Source: a virus. From it: a stretch of DNA of 39,810 bases. The stretch lies in IMG/VR virus record IMGVR_UViG_3300019886_000013, positions 1 to 39,810 of that record; one strand, 5' to 3'. The translations under genes and the position numbers were made by a program. This document shows, in pieces, positions 4,380 through 34,964 of the stretch. Numbering within the stretch: position 1 is the first letter of the stretch; each line of letters starts with the position of its first letter. Under the pieces are notes generated by a model. The model was not told the DNA's origin. It made no database searches and saw only the letters and a list, made by a program, of their open reading frames with translations.

Positions 4380-5723
4380 TTAGCCCTGAGATAGAGGGAT
4401 AATAGTTCTCATCGAATATTCAGGAACGACTACTGAACCCCATGTAGAGTCATAGATCATGCCTGTCTGGTTTTGCCCGAATAGAGAACCGTATGTTAAG
4501 CGCAGAGATACACCCGTTTCTGGATCGTATTCATTTGCTGTGTCATATGGTCTTTGTTCAGGTAATTGAGGCATAGCGATATAGAACGCATCGCCACCGA
4601 CAACCATACCCGCTCTGTGAGAAGGAAGAGTTGATGCTTGCATACCAGCTGCTAATGGATTGTTAAGGTTCTGTCCATTTCCGCCAGCCCAATTAAGCGC
4701 AGGGAAAATTGAAACAGTTACTAAACCGCCAGATGTGGAAGCTGCATTTGCGAGAACTCGAACTTGCACAGGGTTGGCACTTTGGGTGTGCCCGATGAAA
4801 GTTAAGTAGCGCATATTAGGTTGACCGCTAACGCCGTCATTAAATTGCATCAAATCGCCAGATAAAATTGCGCTTGCATCAGAGGTGCCTGCACCTGAGA
4901 AAGTTAACGCTGTAACATTTTGTCCGGTTGGATCATTGGTGCTAACTAATGTCAGAGTTGTTCCATTGATACCTACGTTTCCAGAAACATGGATAGGCAG
5001 CAAGTTTGATTGGTAGTACTCAACTTTAGGACTTCCAAAATCACCTACTTCCCATGACATAGCAATTTCATCATTTCGCATTGGTACGAATTGGTTTAAG
5101 CCAGTTCCGACAATGGAAGGAATGATTGTGTCAGGTAAGTAGTGCTTGATGCCATGAGACACTGCGCCGTAGTTTTTGAAGAACATAATTTCCTGAGCAA
5201 GTTGTTGGTAACTTGTCAAAGGTGTCACGCCATTTCCGAAGAAACGATATGGGCCAGATTCAGTATGCAATGCACCTGTTGGAACAGATTGACCATTTTG
5301 ATCAACGGACATAACAGGAACCGCACTGATAACATTCAATGCAATATTAGCTTCGATTTGATTCGCTAATTCTGCCATGAAGGATTTACCGAACACACGC
5401 ATGTAATCTTCTTCACCTTTTTCTAAGTTGAATATGCGTTGTTGCGATGTAACTGCGAAGGAAGCATTACCTGCTTGATCGCAGGATAGAGATTGAACTC
5501 TTTGATCCGCACTTTGCCATGCTGCAACCAAACCATTGGTGACAGTTGCGCGAGGTGGTAAATCAAAGGTAACGACTGATCCAAGATTCGCTTGAATCTT
5601 ATCAAAGTCTTTAAATTTTGTATTTGCTGTGCTGACAAAGCAGCATAGGTTTAATAACAAGCCAAGAGACGATCTTTGATACGTCTGTACTTGTTGTAAA
5701 ATATTAGCAGGATAAACAGCCAT
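4380..5723 (-). CDS. Major coat protein, P22 gp5-like (HK97 fold)
   Basis: A 447-aa protein; P22 coat is 430 aa. It matches the P22-type coat pattern: MAVYPANILQQVQ start, a Thr/Phe/Asp-rich N-arm (VVTFDLPPRATVTNG), and the long spine-helix region EEDYMRVFGKSFMAELANQI followed by EANIALN, all typical of P22-like HK97-fold coats. The central Gly/Thr-rich section (about 245-345) would correspond to the inserted domain. It is the second gene after the promoter at 6677-6705, preceded by the scaffold gene, and has a good ribosome site (AAGGGAG). Scaffold and coat together would assemble the procapsid. Confidence 0.88.
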   Translation of the reverse strand: MAVYPANILQQVQTYQRSSLGLLLNLCCFVSTANTKFKDFDKIQANLGSVVTFDLPPRATVTNGLVAAWQSADQRVQSLSCDQAGNASFAVTSQQRIFNLEKGEEDYMRVFGKSFMAELANQIEANIALNVISAVPVMSVDQNGQSVPTGALHTESGPYRFFGNGVTPLTSYQQLAQEIMFFKNYGAVSHGIKHYLPDTIIPSIVGTGLNQFVPMRNDEIAMSWEVGDFGSPKVEYYQSNLLPIHVSGNVGINGTTLTLVSTNDPTGQNVTALTFSGAGTSDASAILSGDLMQFNDGVSGQPNMRYLTFIGHTQSANPVQVRVLANAASTSGGLVTVSIFPALNWAGGNGQNLNNPLAAGMQASTLPSHRAGMVVGGDAFYIAMPQLPEQRPYDTANEYDPETGVSLRLTYGSLFGQNQTGMIYDSTWGSVVVPEYSMRTIIPLSQG

Positions 5724-5774
5724 GAGATCACTCCCTTAAATTCCATTTAGAGAGGACATGGGCTTACTTAGTGG

Positions 5775-6536
5775 TTACGCTCGATAATTAGGATTTCTCC
5801 GATAATCGCTAACCGACTTCATAGCACCAGTGTCCGTACCAGTATTAGAAGGTCTCATATGATTCAATGGAGATTTAGGTAACTTAAAGTTTTGTGCCGC
5901 TTCGTTGTCTTTAAGACGTTGCGACATTTTAACCATCAAGTTATATGCGAGTTTTGGCGAAGTGTTAATTAATTGCTGCAAGTTTCCGATTTTCTCGGGG
6001 TTCTGCGCAAGGTCATACATCACATCCGCTGTGTTATCCACCATGTTCGCAAGCTGCACGATATGAGGGATATTTTTAAACTCAACATCACCAACGGTTT
6101 GATCCCAATCCTGATATTTAGCTTTGCCTGTATCGAGTTTATTTGTAAACTCATGCGCAATTCGAGTGGCTTCCTGCTCATTCGATTTTTGCTGAGACTC
6201 CTGAATCCATTCGTCTCTCAAGCGTGAGGCTTCTTGGGCTGCCAATTTTCTAACATCGCTTTCAGTAACCTGTGGCATCCCGCCTAATAATTGCGGTTGA
6301 GATTGTGCCTGAGGTTGCGAGTTGGATTGCTGCTGTGATGACGTATATTCGCGTTTACCGCGCTCATACGCTTCCGCTTTCGCACGTCCAACGATGCTAT
6401 CAACATCGGATTGCCTTAAAAGTTTTTCGCTTGTGTCGCTAGATGCCGGTTGTGCCGACGCTGACGACGTTGCTACAGGTTGCGAGCTAGAGTTATCAGA
6501 ACTCTGACTCATTCCATTGTTTACCATTTCAGTCAT
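5775..6536 (-). CDS. Scaffolding protein (gp8-like)
   Basis: A 253-aa, highly charged, Gln/Ser-rich helical protein directly upstream of coat; P22 gp8 is 303 aa. The first ~35 residues are disordered Ser/Gln, followed by a helix-rich core (ESDVRKLAAQEASRLRDEWI) and a C-terminal segment with basic residues (SVSDYRRNPNYRA). In P22 the C-terminal helix-turn-helix with basic residues binds the coat N-arm, and a similar basic end is visible here. Composition, length and position support the call. The start ATG is 13 nt after an AGGGA ribosome site. Confidence 0.8.
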   Translation of the reverse strand: MTEMVNNGMSQSSDNSSSQPVATSSASAQPASSDTSEKLLRQSDVDSIVGRAKAEAYERGKREYTSSQQQSNSQPQAQSQPQLLGGMPQVTESDVRKLAAQEASRLRDEWIQESQQKSNEQEATRIAHEFTNKLDTGKAKYQDWDQTVGDVEFKNIPHIVQLANMVDNTADVMYDLAQNPEKIGNLQQLINTSPKLAYNLMVKMSQRLKDNEAAQNFKLPKSPLNHMRPSNTGTDTGAMKSVSDYRRNPNYRA

Positions 6537-29050: not shown

Positions 29051-29600
29051 AAAAACAGTTCATGGCTCTCGATGACTGGCGCCAAAATTAGTCGTGCTGC
29101 CTTGATAAGACGTAGGCTTGAAAGGGTACCTATCGAATCAAGTGACCCCTTATCACGAGACAGATGTAGAGAGCCGCCAGTTATGGCCGAAGACAAGCAC
29201 AGAGGTCGCAAGCCTTTTAAAACTATGCGGAAAATAGGCCGCTTTTTATCGGGAGATAGTTTAAGGCGGGGATAACACGTGATAAGACCGTAAAACAGCG
29301 GGCTTTGAATCCGCACAATGCAGGTGAAAGCCCTGCTCTTCCGGCTCCTTTATGGCCGACGATACTTAGCCGAACGTACAAGTTTACGGCAACCGCTAGG
29401 GAAAATAGGCCACCATTTTGCTTAACCTACCAATATGGTTTGAATTGATAGATAATCAGTATTTGAGGAAATCGCGGCGTTGACAATGAAACGCATGACC
29501 CCTGCGAGCGGGGAGAAACCCTAGTGGACAATTGGCTTATATAAAATCGTGAGCCTAGCCAGTGCAATTCTGGTCGATTGCCTCTATTAAAAATAGAAAT
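29051..29600 (+). ncRNA. Candidate large structured RNA (class not recognised)
   Basis: A ~540-nt stretch without a credible gene. Counted GC is 31/60 at 29161-29220 and 33/60 at 29341-29400, versus 15/60 at 28981-29040. Clear helices: GGCTCTC 29064 with GAGAGCC 29169; TGACTGGC 29073 with GCCAGTTA 29176 (crossing the first, so a pseudoknot or switch); TGATAAG 29103 with CTTATCA 29149; a 12-bp helix 29212-29226 with 29256-29267; CCGCTAGGG 29393 with CCCTAGTGG 29519; hairpins at 29477, 29499 and 29559. Size and phage context recall the GOLLD and ROOL RNAs. The + strand is inferred from its operon and from G-U pairs. Confidence 0.68.
29250..29344 (+). ncRNA. tRNA-Gln(UUG)-like cloverleaf with expanded D-loop
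   Basis: A 7-bp acceptor (CGGGAGA/TCTTCCG), TA at 8-9, D stem GTTT/AAAC with a 30-nt loop, one base, anticodon stem GCGGG/TCCGC with loop CTTTGAA (anticodon TTG), a 5-nt variable loop, T stem GCAGG/CCTGC with 7-nt loop TGAAAGC, and discriminator G. Geometry is exact apart from the D-loop (normal 7-11 nt) and a T-loop that departs from TTCRANN. It competes with a 12-bp alternative helix (29212-29226/29256-29267). I call it tRNA-like, not a tRNA gene. Confidence 0.45.
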
Positions 29601-32586: not shown

Positions 32587-33546
32587 TTACGACACTAAAT
32601 AACCAATCAATAATGTGCCGTTTAAAGCAGTTGCAGCTGTATTATTGAAAATGGTGAGTGTCGATGTTCCAGCACCGTTAGTTACTTTGAAATTGAGATT
32701 GTTGGTAGCATTATTACTTCCACCCATGATGCTCAATTGAATAACAGAGGTTGTCGTAATAAAGGTATTTGTCCAAGTGATCGCATAAATTGCGCCACCT
32801 GCGGTTGTAAGAGCGGATGTTGTAATGATACCCGACGTGCCGCTTGCTGTGACCGCATTAGCCGCTTCAGTAGCATTTACTTTAGCTAGTACAATGGATG
32901 AGCCTGCTGCCATCGTATTGGTTGAGTCTTTGCGTACTATATTGCTTGCCAAGATTCCGCTGTCAGAAATAGTGCCAGCCGCATCAGCTGCGGTTACAAC
33001 ATCACCAATAGTGAAGCCGGAACCTGCGGTTGAGGCAACTGTTGATAAAGCATTATTAGAAGCTGCTTTTGCTGCTGCTGTTCCTAATACACCACCATCA
33101 CCAATGGTGCCATCTGCCGCTGTAAATGCTGCAACGTGGTTGATGGTTGGAGCCGCATTTAACATAACAACTTTAGTTTTGGCAGCATTAGTAGGGGAAT
33201 AACCTGCATCTTTAATTTGACCAGATGTGCCATTAAAATTTGCGAAATCATTACTAACAACAGGAAGTAATACATCGCCCGGATTAGCCCAATTGACCAG
33301 AGTGATAACACCATTTGAGATTGATGGTGTAAATACGCCATAAGTTCCAGAATTGGTTGCAGAGTTAAAGAGATAGATTAAATCAACAACGTCGGTGCCA
33401 TAAATAACATATCCTTCTAAGCTAGTAGGATTTAAATAGCCTGCGGTTGTAACAGTAGCTAAAGAATCAGTTGCAACAATTTTGATTCGACGAGGATTAA
33501 CGCCAACTTGACCTGCTGTGTCTGTGTAAATAGATACGATACTCAT
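32587..33546 (-). CDS. Tail fibre/structural protein
   Basis: A 319-aa protein from the ATG at 33546 (MSIVSIYTDTAGQVGVNPRR) with a strong AAGGAG site; a frame to 33648 is not preferred. The N-terminal ~100 residues look like a virion-attachment domain and the remainder is an Ala/Thr/Gly beta shaft (NNALSTVASTAGSGFTIGDV...) with many 'DAGxxxTNAA' style repeats. It is the second-last fibre-type gene, just before the terminator. Trimeric shaft is typical for the type, not shown here. Confidence 0.7.
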   Translation of the reverse strand: MSIVSIYTDTAGQVGVNPRRIKIVATDSLATVTTAGYLNPTSLEGYVIYGTDVVDLIYLFNSATNSGTYGVFTPSISNGVITLVNWANPGDVLLPVVSNDFANFNGTSGQIKDAGYSPTNAAKTKVVMLNAAPTINHVAAFTAADGTIGDGGVLGTAAAKAASNNALSTVASTAGSGFTIGDVVTAADAAGTISDSGILASNIVRKDSTNTMAAGSSIVLAKVNATEAANAVTASGTSGIITTSALTTAGGAIYAITWTNTFITTTSVIQLSIMGGSNNATNNLNFKVTNGAGTSTLTIFNNTAATALNGTLLIGYLVS

Positions 33547-33584
33547 TTCAAAAACTCCTTTTAATGAAAAAAATGAAAAACTTT

Positions 33585-34949
33585 TTAAGCAACCGTTAAG
33601 TTGCCAATAACACTTGTAACTGCAAACGTCGTGTTCGCTGTCACACAAACGATTGTTACACTATCCCATAAATTTGTCGATGTGAGAGAACCAGCACTTG
33701 AAGTTGCTGAGCTTCCCAAATGAATAACTTGTCCGGTATTGGCTTGCAATATCCAGCCAGCCGCTCCCTTTCCTTGTACCGCAAAGACTGAGCCTTCGGC
33801 GGCAGTAGCAGGAAGGCTGACAGTGGTTTGTCCAGCATTGGAAATAATATAGCCATTATTGACTGCTGCGGCTTGAGTTGTACCGGCCACATCATTCCAA
33901 GTTAATGTTCCAGACGCACCGCCAGTTAACGCAATAGAGATGCTTCCTGATCCGCTTGTCACGGTGATGCCAGTACCCGAGCTTATTGTCGTTGCAGCTG
34001 GCGCACTTGCGGTCGTTCCTACTAATATCTGACCAGCAGTTAAGGTTTGCCAAGCTGGAACTCCGGCGCCACTTGTCACGAGTGCAGCGCTATTGGCTGT
34101 TGCAAGGCCAGTAACTGCGTTAGTGCCAGATGCGTAAAGAAGAGTGCTTACTGCATAAGTATCTGCAAAAGTAGAGGTTGAATAGACATTATTAGTCGCA
34201 TCGGATCGTAGAATCTTACCAGCTGTTCCACTTACGCTTGGATAGGTCGGCGTTGAATAAGCCAATCCTGATGCTGCACCAGAGCTCACTTGCAGAATTT
34301 GTCCATCTACTGTGCCAACTGCTAAACGTGCATTGGTTGTCGTCCAGACCCAAATATCACCTTTCGTGGTAAGAGGTGATGCTAATAATTGCGCAGTAGT
34401 TGCCAAGGTACCAGAGGTTGGAAAGGTTACAGAGGTCGTATTGGTGAATGTGAATATTGCGCCAAATGCGCCGACGGTTGTTAAAGCACCAGCGGTTGTT
34501 AATGTGCCACCCAATGATAGAGCGAAGGCTCCCCATGAAGGTGCAGCGGTGGCACCTGATAATAAAGGTAGATTTGCTGTAGCAGTTCCTGAAAGGACGG
34601 CCATAGCGGTCGCTGTTGAATAAATAATACCTCCATTGCTAGCGGTTAAACTCGCATTTGAACCACCACGGGTTAATCCTAATTGTCCTGTCCAGCCAAG
34701 TGTGAGTGATGCAGCATGGAGTAATGCAGTTGCAGGTGTGCCACCTAATGTGAGAGTCACGTTTGTATCATCTGTTTTGGTTAATGCAGCTGCTGTGTAA
34801 GGTGCACCAAATTGGGCGCTAAAATTTGAAAATGTCATTGCCGCATCATTGCCGACGCCATAAGGTGATTGACCAAAATACATTAAATCTGTCATGGCAT
34901 TAGATGTAATTGGATTTGCAATAAAAATCTGATTAATATTCTTTGACAT
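33585..34949 (-). CDS. Large repetitive tail fibre protein
   Basis: A 454-aa protein from the ATG at 34949 (MSKNINQIFIANPITSNAMT), with a GGAG site. A virion-attachment N-domain (~50 residues) precedes a long Ala/Thr/Gly shaft with repeats such as GTLTTAGALTTVGAFGA and GDIWVWTTTNARLAVGTVDG. The last ~100 residues (WNDVAGTTQAAAVNNGYIIS...) are the module shared with the 31793-32533 protein. The two likely arose by duplication and could assemble on the same tail. Very low complexity favours recombination. Confidence 0.72.
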   Translation of the reverse strand: MSKNINQIFIANPITSNAMTDLMYFGQSPYGVGNDAAMTFSNFSAQFGAPYTAAALTKTDDTNVTLTLGGTPATALLHAASLTLGWTGQLGLTRGGSNASLTASNGGIIYSTATAMAVLSGTATANLPLLSGATAAPSWGAFALSLGGTLTTAGALTTVGAFGAIFTFTNTTSVTFPTSGTLATTAQLLASPLTTKGDIWVWTTTNARLAVGTVDGQILQVSSGAASGLAYSTPTYPSVSGTAGKILRSDATNNVYSTSTFADTYAVSTLLYASGTNAVTGLATANSAALVTSGAGVPAWQTLTAGQILVGTTASAPAATTISSGTGITVTSGSGSISIALTGGASGTLTWNDVAGTTQAAAVNNGYIISNAGQTTVSLPATAAEGSVFAVQGKGAAGWILQANTGQVIHLGSSATSSAGSLTSTNLWDSVTIVCVTANTTFAVTSVIGNLTVA

Positions 34950-34964
34950 GTGAAACTCCATTTC

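What the first reader, a model, noticed from the sequence alone, without database searches (positions are those of the whole stretch)
29051..29600. Candidate ~540-nt structured RNA in the early region of the phage
Seen: no credible gene, GC about twice that of the neighbouring sequence in counted stretches, and at least ten complementary helices including long-range ones (29064/29169, 29073/29176, 29103/29149, 29212/29256, 29393/29519). Known: phages carry giant ornate RNAs (GOLLD, ROOL) of similar size, often beside tRNA-like sequence. Inference: this could be a new member or a new class, and it is the best candidate for an undescribed system here.
Basis: partly seen in the sequence, partly recalled or inferred. 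Interest (0 to 1): 0.85.

Follow-up and report, generated by a model that had tools for sequence, protein, structure and literature searches.

The report
Phage arrays of tRNA-like small RNAs
The stretch is not one giant RNA but a string of five small tRNA-shaped RNAs, three of them copies of two new RNA families found in about a hundred uncultured phages, each family keeping a constant tRNA-like frame around a middle part that differs from phage to phage.

Summary
Real structured RNA, but not a single ~540-nt ornate RNA. Window 29064-29583 is a head-to-tail array of five tRNA-like units: T3 (29064-29175), T1a (29185-29240), a tRNA-Gln(UUG)-like cloverleaf (29250-29343), T1b (29354-29411), T2 (29467-29582). 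No Rfam 15 family reaches threshold there. Homologues from viral contigs define two new RNA families with strong covariation. T1: GGCC, invariant 7x7 internal loop GACGAUA/RAAAAUA, covarying stem, GGCC-RCCA; 56 unique copies in 42 records. T2: 8-bp acceptor stem, D-like arm with loop GACARUGA, T-arm with loop UGCAAUU, and a 40-160-nt variable domain instead of an anticodon arm; 59 copies in 53 records. Units are separated by (CCA)GTTTAT linkers and interleaved with canonical tRNAs in relatives; base -1 is nearly always a pyrimidine. Some variable domains are structured modules shared between phages. No match in 50,697 phage records, 72,556 plasmids, or (T1 only, strict pattern) 84,980 prokaryote species. 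Best reading: polycistronic, non-decoding tRNA-like RNAs matured by the host's tRNA enzymes, with a trans-acting, perhaps counter-defence role. Processing and function are inferred; there are no expression data. The long-range helices reported between units compete with covariation-supported ones.

The parts
29064..29179 (+). Unit 1, type T3: acceptor-like stem GGCTCTC (29064-29070)/GAGAGCC (29169-29175), D-like arm GACT/AGTC, then G-CCA (29176-29179)
   Evidence: Homologues in L010, L088 (= L103), L098; alignment A7: all 44 cells paired, D-stem GACU/AGUC, GACA/UGUU, GCCC/GGGC, GUCA/UGAC; own fold z -2.19. Only 4 distinct members.
29180..29184 (+). Linker GTTAT between unit 1 and unit 2
   Evidence: Same (G)TTTAT-type linker between units elsewhere
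29185..29241 (+). Unit 2, T1 copy a (degenerate): GGCC ... GGCC-G, second helix only about 3 bp
   Evidence: R1 46.6 bits, E 1.1e-9; own fold not exceptional, z -0.49
29242..29249 (+). Linker CTTTTTAT
   Evidence: sequence
29250..29344 (+). Unit 3: tRNA-Gln-like cloverleaf; acceptor CGGGAGA/TCTTCCG, D-stem GTTT/AAAC with 29-nt loop, anticodon TTG at 29305-29307, T-loop TGAAAGC
   Evidence: All 21 cloverleaf pairs form; this geometry has 4 hits in 3.26 million tested windows of the record and starts exactly at a linker. ARAGORN 0 genes; Rfam tRNA 19.1 bits, below the 29-bit threshold.
29345..29353 (+). CTCC plus linker TTTAT
   Evidence: sequence
29354..29415 (+). Unit 4, T1 copy b: GGCC-GACGATA-CTTAGC ... 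GCTAGG-GAAAATA-GGCC-A-CCA
   Evidence: R1 71.6 bits, E 1.5e-16 (it is one of the 19 seed sequences); MFE structure equals the family consensus, z -2.53
29467..29583 (+). Unit 5, T2: acceptor GGAAATCG (29467-29474)/CGATTGCC (29575-29582), D-like arm GCGTT-GACAATGA-AACGC (29477-29494), variable domain, T-arm GCCAG-TGCAATT-CTGGT (29558-29574)
   Evidence: R2 85.3 bits, E 5e-19 (one of the 23 seed sequences); MFE structure equals the consensus; covariation
29534..29555 (+). Hairpin of the T2 variable domain: stem GGCTTA/TGAGCC, loop TATAAAATCG
   Evidence: In L021, L136 and L091 the stem is recoded (GACUCU, GAUUUG, GUCUCG with matching partners) while loop bases AUAAAAUCG stay identical

Best explanation
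The stretch is a polycistronic array of five small tRNA-like RNAs in the transcript that also carries the RecE-RecT-SSB genes. Each unit closes on itself with an acceptor-like stem and begins after a short U-rich linker; T1 and T3 units end in RCCA. The host's tRNA-maturation enzymes would cut the precursor: RNase P between the pyrimidine at -1 and +1, nucleases at the 3' side, CCA addition where CCA is not encoded. The products cannot decode: T1 is a rod with an invariant internal loop, and T2 has acceptor, D-like and T arms but a swappable structured domain instead of an anticodon arm. I think they act in trans as tRNA mimics whose constant frame gives processing, stability and entry to tRNA-binding factors, and whose variable domain gives specificity, most plausibly against host defences that act on tRNA or through tRNA-binding proteins. 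Shown: unit borders, conserved structure, covariation, spread, interleaving with canonical tRNAs, modular variable domains. Inferred: transcription, maturation, trans action. Least certain: the counter-defence role (about 0.3).
For: T1 helix P2 covaries: 121 of 204 cells paired against 77.6 +/- 6.7 with partners exchanged, maximum 106 in 5000; covariation score 0.406 against 0.137, 0/500 and, on 46 sequences, 0.346 against 0.137, 0/500. T2: 99.0% of cells paired against 87.9 +/- 0.8, 11 of 18 pairs with two-sided changes, 40 such cells against 10.1. Independent test: a scan with the 3' half of T2 alone brought 17 new loci, all 17 with a T2 model match at that place. Canonical tRNAs lie between units: L106 tRNA-Thr, tRNA-Asn, T2, tRNA-Gln, tRNA-Met; L091 T2, tRNA-Gln, T2; L109 T2, tRNA-Asn, T1; L013 and L017 tRNA-Gln next to T2. 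Base -1 is T in 47 of 50 T1, T or C in 43 of 44 T2; linkers such as CCA-(G)TTTAT between adjacent units. T2 has no conserved stem closing the variable domain, so no anticodon arm and no interrupted tRNA. Modules shared between phages. The arrays sit beside different genes (SSB, Sak4, Gam, RecT, terminase) in diverse phages.
Against: No expression data. P1 of T1 has only 4-5 pairs, short for an RNase P substrate of the acceptor/T-stem kind. CCA is encoded after only 7 of 44 T2. Helix P1 of T1 is almost invariant, so covariation speaks for P2 far more than for P1. Many last units sit 17-34 nt before a start codon with a Shine-Dalgarno sequence (19 of 55 T1, 24 of 58 T2; random places 10%), which also fits a cis role. 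Host and targets are unknown; no anti-sense matches to the units' own loci.
Confidence: 0.6

Rival explanations
1. The units are cis elements: structured punctuation in operon transcripts that controls processing, stability or translation of the next gene, and the excised pieces are by-products.
For: Same strand as most neighbouring coding sequence in 52 of 62 locus-strand groups; a Shine-Dalgarno plus start codon follows within 60 nt in 43 of 113 units against 10% at random places.
Against: Multi-unit arrays with two to four T1 copies, T2 and tRNAs are more than punctuation needs; the downstream genes differ from phage to phage; canonical tRNAs occupy the same places; the variable domains are conserved as modules.
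Confidence: 0.2
2. An ordinary phage tRNA cluster whose members have decayed into pseudo-tRNAs.
For: Unit 3 looks like an altered tRNA-Gln(UUG); canonical tRNAs occur in related arrays.
Against: T1 and T2 are kept under selection for structure in unrelated phages with invariant loops that no tRNA has; decay would not preserve GACGAUA/RAAAAUA or GACARUGA.
Confidence: 0.07
3. An RNA-guide or antisense array (TIGR-like or CRISPR-like), constant frames holding variable guides.
For: Constant flanks and variable inserts in tandem (L017, four T1 copies).
Against: The inserts are themselves paired, vary from 18 to 163 nt, and have no antisense matches in their own loci beyond shuffles (8.8 against 8.9 nt); no Nop-domain or Cas protein among ten neighbours in the window.
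Confidence: 0.08
4. T1 is a small self-cleaving ribozyme that frees the units.
For: Short helices around an invariant symmetric internal loop; tandem copies.
Against: No Rfam ribozyme match; units flanked by T2 or tRNAs have the same linkers without T1; the RCCA ends point to tRNA enzymes.
Confidence: 0.04
5. A single large ornate RNA (GOLLD/ROOL-like) of about 540 nt.
For: Long complementary stretches between units; tRNA-like part.
Against: No Rfam match; units occur singly and in other orders; the long-range pairs are not conserved; whole-region z only -1.44.
Confidence: 0.01

Closest known systems
Phage tRNA clusters, including phage tRNAs that evade tRNA-cleaving defences (PMC10264068, PMC11555353, PMC13096335)
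   Same: tRNA-like ends, tandem layout with short linkers, canonical tRNAs in the same arrays
   Different: T1 and T2 have no anticodon arm and cannot decode; constant frame with a structured variable domain; T1 is not a cloverleaf
GOLLD and ROOL (PMC12286853)
   Same: phage non-coding RNA of unknown function near or with tRNAs; GOLLD can hold tRNAs in its linker
   Different: units of 55-220 nt, not one molecule of 500-800 nt; no sequence or model match
tmRNA, bacterial Y RNA (YrlA) and herpesvirus TMER RNAs (viral tRNA-like head plus effector hairpins); from own knowledge
   Same: a tRNA-like head or end joined to a non-tRNA domain
   Different: no tmRNA found by ARAGORN, no match to any Rfam model; the variable domain replaces the anticodon arm and differs between phages
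TIGR arrays (PMC12045711)
   Same: tandem constant and variable units in phages
   Different: TIGR units give 36-nt RNAs with box C/D and two short spacers next to a Nop-domain protein; none of that here

Membership tests
GOLLD / ROOL | match to the Rfam covariance model | tested here: not met
   no match at gathering score or at E up to 10
GOLLD / ROOL | one conserved structure of 500-800 nt | tested here: not met
   units recur separately and in other orders
GOLLD / ROOL | located in phages near tRNAs | tested here: met
   (relatives); unit 3 in the window
tRNA (decoding) | acceptor, D, anticodon and T arms; score above threshold | tested here: not met
   window: ARAGORN 0, Rfam 19.1 bits of 29 needed. 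Unit 3 has all four arms but an oversized D-loop and T-loop UGAAAGC; T2 lacks an anticodon arm; T1 lacks all arms
tRNA-like RNA (structural sense) | acceptor-type closing stem with T-arm stacked on it, single-stranded NCCA or place for CCA | tested here: met
   T2; T1 and T3: closing stem and RCCA but no T-arm
tRNA-like RNA (structural sense) | cut by RNase P and tailed with CCA | not testable with these tools
   only sequence hints: pyrimidine at -1, RCCA, linkers
tmRNA | tmRNA model match with tag reading frame | tested here: not met
   ARAGORN and Rfam find none
tRNA with an intron | anticodon stem halves on both sides of the insert | tested here: not met
   no pairing of the ends of the T2 variable domain above exchanged partners, best z 1.2 over 49 offsets
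TIGR-Tas | Nop-domain Tas protein beside the array | tested here: not met
   Pfam on ten window proteins around the array; not scanned in all relatives
Hammerhead and other Rfam ribozymes | Rfam model match | tested here: not met
   L041 hammerhead-like stretch

The most novel reading that the evidence does not exclude
Uncultured phages use a general tRNA-framed RNA cassette: constant frames (T1, T2, T3) that the host's tRNA enzymes excise and stabilise, carrying exchangeable RNA effector domains, spread as modules among unrelated phages and used as RNA counter-defence or host-takeover agents.
Probability: 0.35. Interest if true: 0.92.

Novelty: categorically new. Interest (0 to 1): 0.78.

Why it matters
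Two RNA families with clear covariation and over 100 distinct members are absent from Rfam 15, from 50,697 phage records and from 72,556 plasmids as far as blastn can see. They show a construction not described for phages as far as I could find: tRNA-like frames without an anticodon arm, holding exchangeable structured domains, set in tandem among true tRNAs. If the RNAs act in trans, they open phage RNA effectors (decoys, inhibitors) as a class, and give a handle on why phages carry tRNA-like genes that cannot decode. The two covariance models make the question directly testable in metatranscriptomes.

Tried and rejected
Single giant RNA: rejected. Protein gene: rejected. Hammerhead ribozyme suspected by eye in L041 and L010: no Rfam match even at E 5. 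Antisense targets in the units' own loci: none beyond shuffles. Intron-interrupted tRNA for T2: no closing stem. T1 in a Chloroflexi MAG (L050): 17.5 bits, 66% GC, judged chance; hence no convincing T1 in 84,980 species, but the pattern used would find only 24 of 56 known T1 units and T2 could not be scanned there. Chance controls for pattern scans: the T3 scan gave 13 hits of which only L088, L098 and L103 are real; L028, L035, L036, L038 and L039 are one coding stretch; 5'-box hits L137, L139, L141, L142, L144, L148 and L150-L158 are coding or unsupported. Search by the SSB protein found no relatives. Promoter and terminator scan uninformative. The genome search draws no relatives for a virus record. 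Literature searches found no description of such arrays in the papers held.

Full report
What was claimed and what is there. The stretch is non-coding and richer in GC than its surroundings (0.464 against 0.347 and 0.285), and several of the named helices exist, but folding energy of the whole is unremarkable (z = -1.44) and Rfam has nothing there beyond half a tRNA at 19 bits. The window is a 39.8-kb virus record with portal, head and terminase genes and a RecE-RecT-SSB block just upstream.

How homologues changed the picture. A search by the RecE protein brought L002, L003 and L004. L002 and L004 carry, downstream of the SSB gene, short matches to window 29349-29418. Reading them showed a pair of boxes, TTTATGGCCGANGATACT and GGGAAARTAGGCCACC, that also occurs twice in the window. 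Pattern scans of viral contigs for the pair gave 43 stretches, five of which are one coding sequence; the rest share both boxes with an unrelated insert between them.

Family T1. The boxes are the two sides of one RNA element: UGGCC/GGCCR, an invariant 7x7 internal loop GACGAUA/RAAAAUA, then a helix P2 of about six pairs and a variable domain. P2 is supported by covariation: 121 of 204 cells paired against 77.6 +/- 6.7 with exchanged partners, never above 106 in 5000 permutations; score 0.406 against 0.137 on 19 sequences and 0.346 against 0.137 on the 46 model matches (that alignment is fitted to the structure and holds three weak matches). The covariance model R1 finds it in nearly all these records, one to four copies each, usually in one cluster.

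Family T2. Beside T1 stand units such as GGCAATCGCGGCGTGGACAGTGACACGC...GCCGGTGCAATTCCGGCCGATTGCC. A scan for the 5' part gave 33 stretches, all but L094 and L097 real. The structure, an 8-bp acceptor stem, a 5-bp arm with loop GACARUGA and a T-arm with loop UGCAAUU, has 99.0% of cells paired against 87.9 +/- 0.8 in shuffles and two-sided changes in 11 of 18 pairs; one copy in L098 has a wholly recoded acceptor stem (GAGACGCT/AGCGTCTC). A scan with the 3' half alone brought 17 further loci and every one has a T2 model match at that place. No stem closes the variable domain where an anticodon stem should be. In all, 56 unique T1 in 42 records and 59 unique T2 in 53 records, 21 records with both, and a few more later.

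The window, unit by unit. T3 at 29064-29175 has relatives in L010, L088 (= L103) and L098, with a covarying D-like stem; four members only. T1a at 29185 is degenerate in P2. Unit 3 at 29250-29344 forms all 21 pairs of a tRNA cloverleaf with anticodon UUG, a 29-nt D-loop and an odd T-loop; this geometry is met at 4 places in 3.26 million windows and here starts right at a linker. T1b at 29354 folds exactly as the consensus. T2 at 29467-29582 shares its variable domain with L021, L136 and L091 at 81-86% identity; there a hairpin stem is recoded in every sequence while the loop bases AUAAAAUCG stay the same, so that domain is a module under selection, not filler. Other variable domains are shared likewise (L030/L086/L104, L083/L102, L088/L098).

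Signs of tRNA-type maturation. Units follow each other with linkers such as CCA-(G)TTTAT; base -1 is T in 47 of 50 T1 and T or C in 43 of 44 T2; T1 mostly encodes RCCA, T2 mostly does not encode CCA. Canonical tRNA genes sit between units with gaps of a few bases in L106, L091 and L109 and next to T2 in L013 and L017 (with 48, 55, 64). By established knowledge of RNase P (preference for a pyrimidine at -1, RCCA contact), this is the layout of a multi-tRNA precursor. That the units are cut is inferred.

Where and in whom. Flanking genes differ (SSB, Sak4, Gam, RecT, terminase, ParB), and terminases point to different phage groups, so the array is a module used by diverse phages. It has no match in phage and plasmid records (only chance-level hits) and no convincing match in genomes (strict T1 pattern, sensitivity about 24 of 56). 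The host is unknown.

Function. The RNAs cannot decode. Three readings remain: trans-acting RNAs with a tRNA-like frame (preferred), cis elements of the operon (units precede a start codon with Shine-Dalgarno in 43 of 113 cases), or guides (antisense test negative). Phage tRNAs are known to blunt tRNA-cleaving defences (PMC10264068, PMC11555353, PMC13096335), which makes tRNA mimicry in counter-defence plausible, but nothing here tests it.

Novelty. Each single feature has a parallel (phage tRNA clusters; tRNA-like heads on other RNAs), but no known family tested fits, and the construction of a constant tRNA-like frame around exchangeable structured domains in tandem is, as far as the libraries and papers held show, undescribed. 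If one counts it as an extension of phage tRNA clusters, it would be a new variant of a known kind.

Noticed in passing
L106 3056-3249 (+): A T2 unit whose variable domain itself contains tRNA-like D-arm and T-arm sequences, set between canonical tRNA-Asn and tRNA-Gln.
   Followed up: partly
L017 minus strand (locus 5455-5786) with tRNA-Gln at 6037-6109 and a weak T2 match at 5917-6032: Four T1 copies in direct tandem with different inserts, preceded by a T2-like unit and a canonical tRNA-Gln(UUG).
   Followed up: yes
L009 and L012, downstream of T1: Another shared unit, GGGGNNAGAAGGG...CNTCCC, similar in both phages and with an acceptor-like stem; probably a further family.
   Followed up: no
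L017 and L045, upstream of T1: Nearly identical unit GGGAGTCAGGTACAGTCAGCCTACACTCTG...TTGATTCCC in two phages.
   Followed up: no
L018, L030 and L045, downstream of the arrays: Stretches with ...GAGCAAGTTCCCT...CCAGTACCCTGCTCGATACTGGC-like text, look like another conserved structured RNA outside the tRNA-like units.
   Followed up: no
L010 and L041 (minus strands): Similar units with CTGATGAG and CGAAA text resembling a hammerhead core; Rfam does not support it for L041.
   Followed up: partly
L138 6217-7575: T2 matches on both strands and T1 within 1.4 kb, unlike the other phages where units share one strand.
   Followed up: no
L083, L102, L049: T2 variable domain TAATGGCGTCTAATCT... shared by three phages (L049 cut by contig end); in L083 and L102 the stem differs but the 21-nt loop is nearly identical.
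   Followed up: partly
window 32587-34961 (-): Two long ORFs (353 and 458 aa) without any PHROG match between tail-like genes.
   Followed up: no
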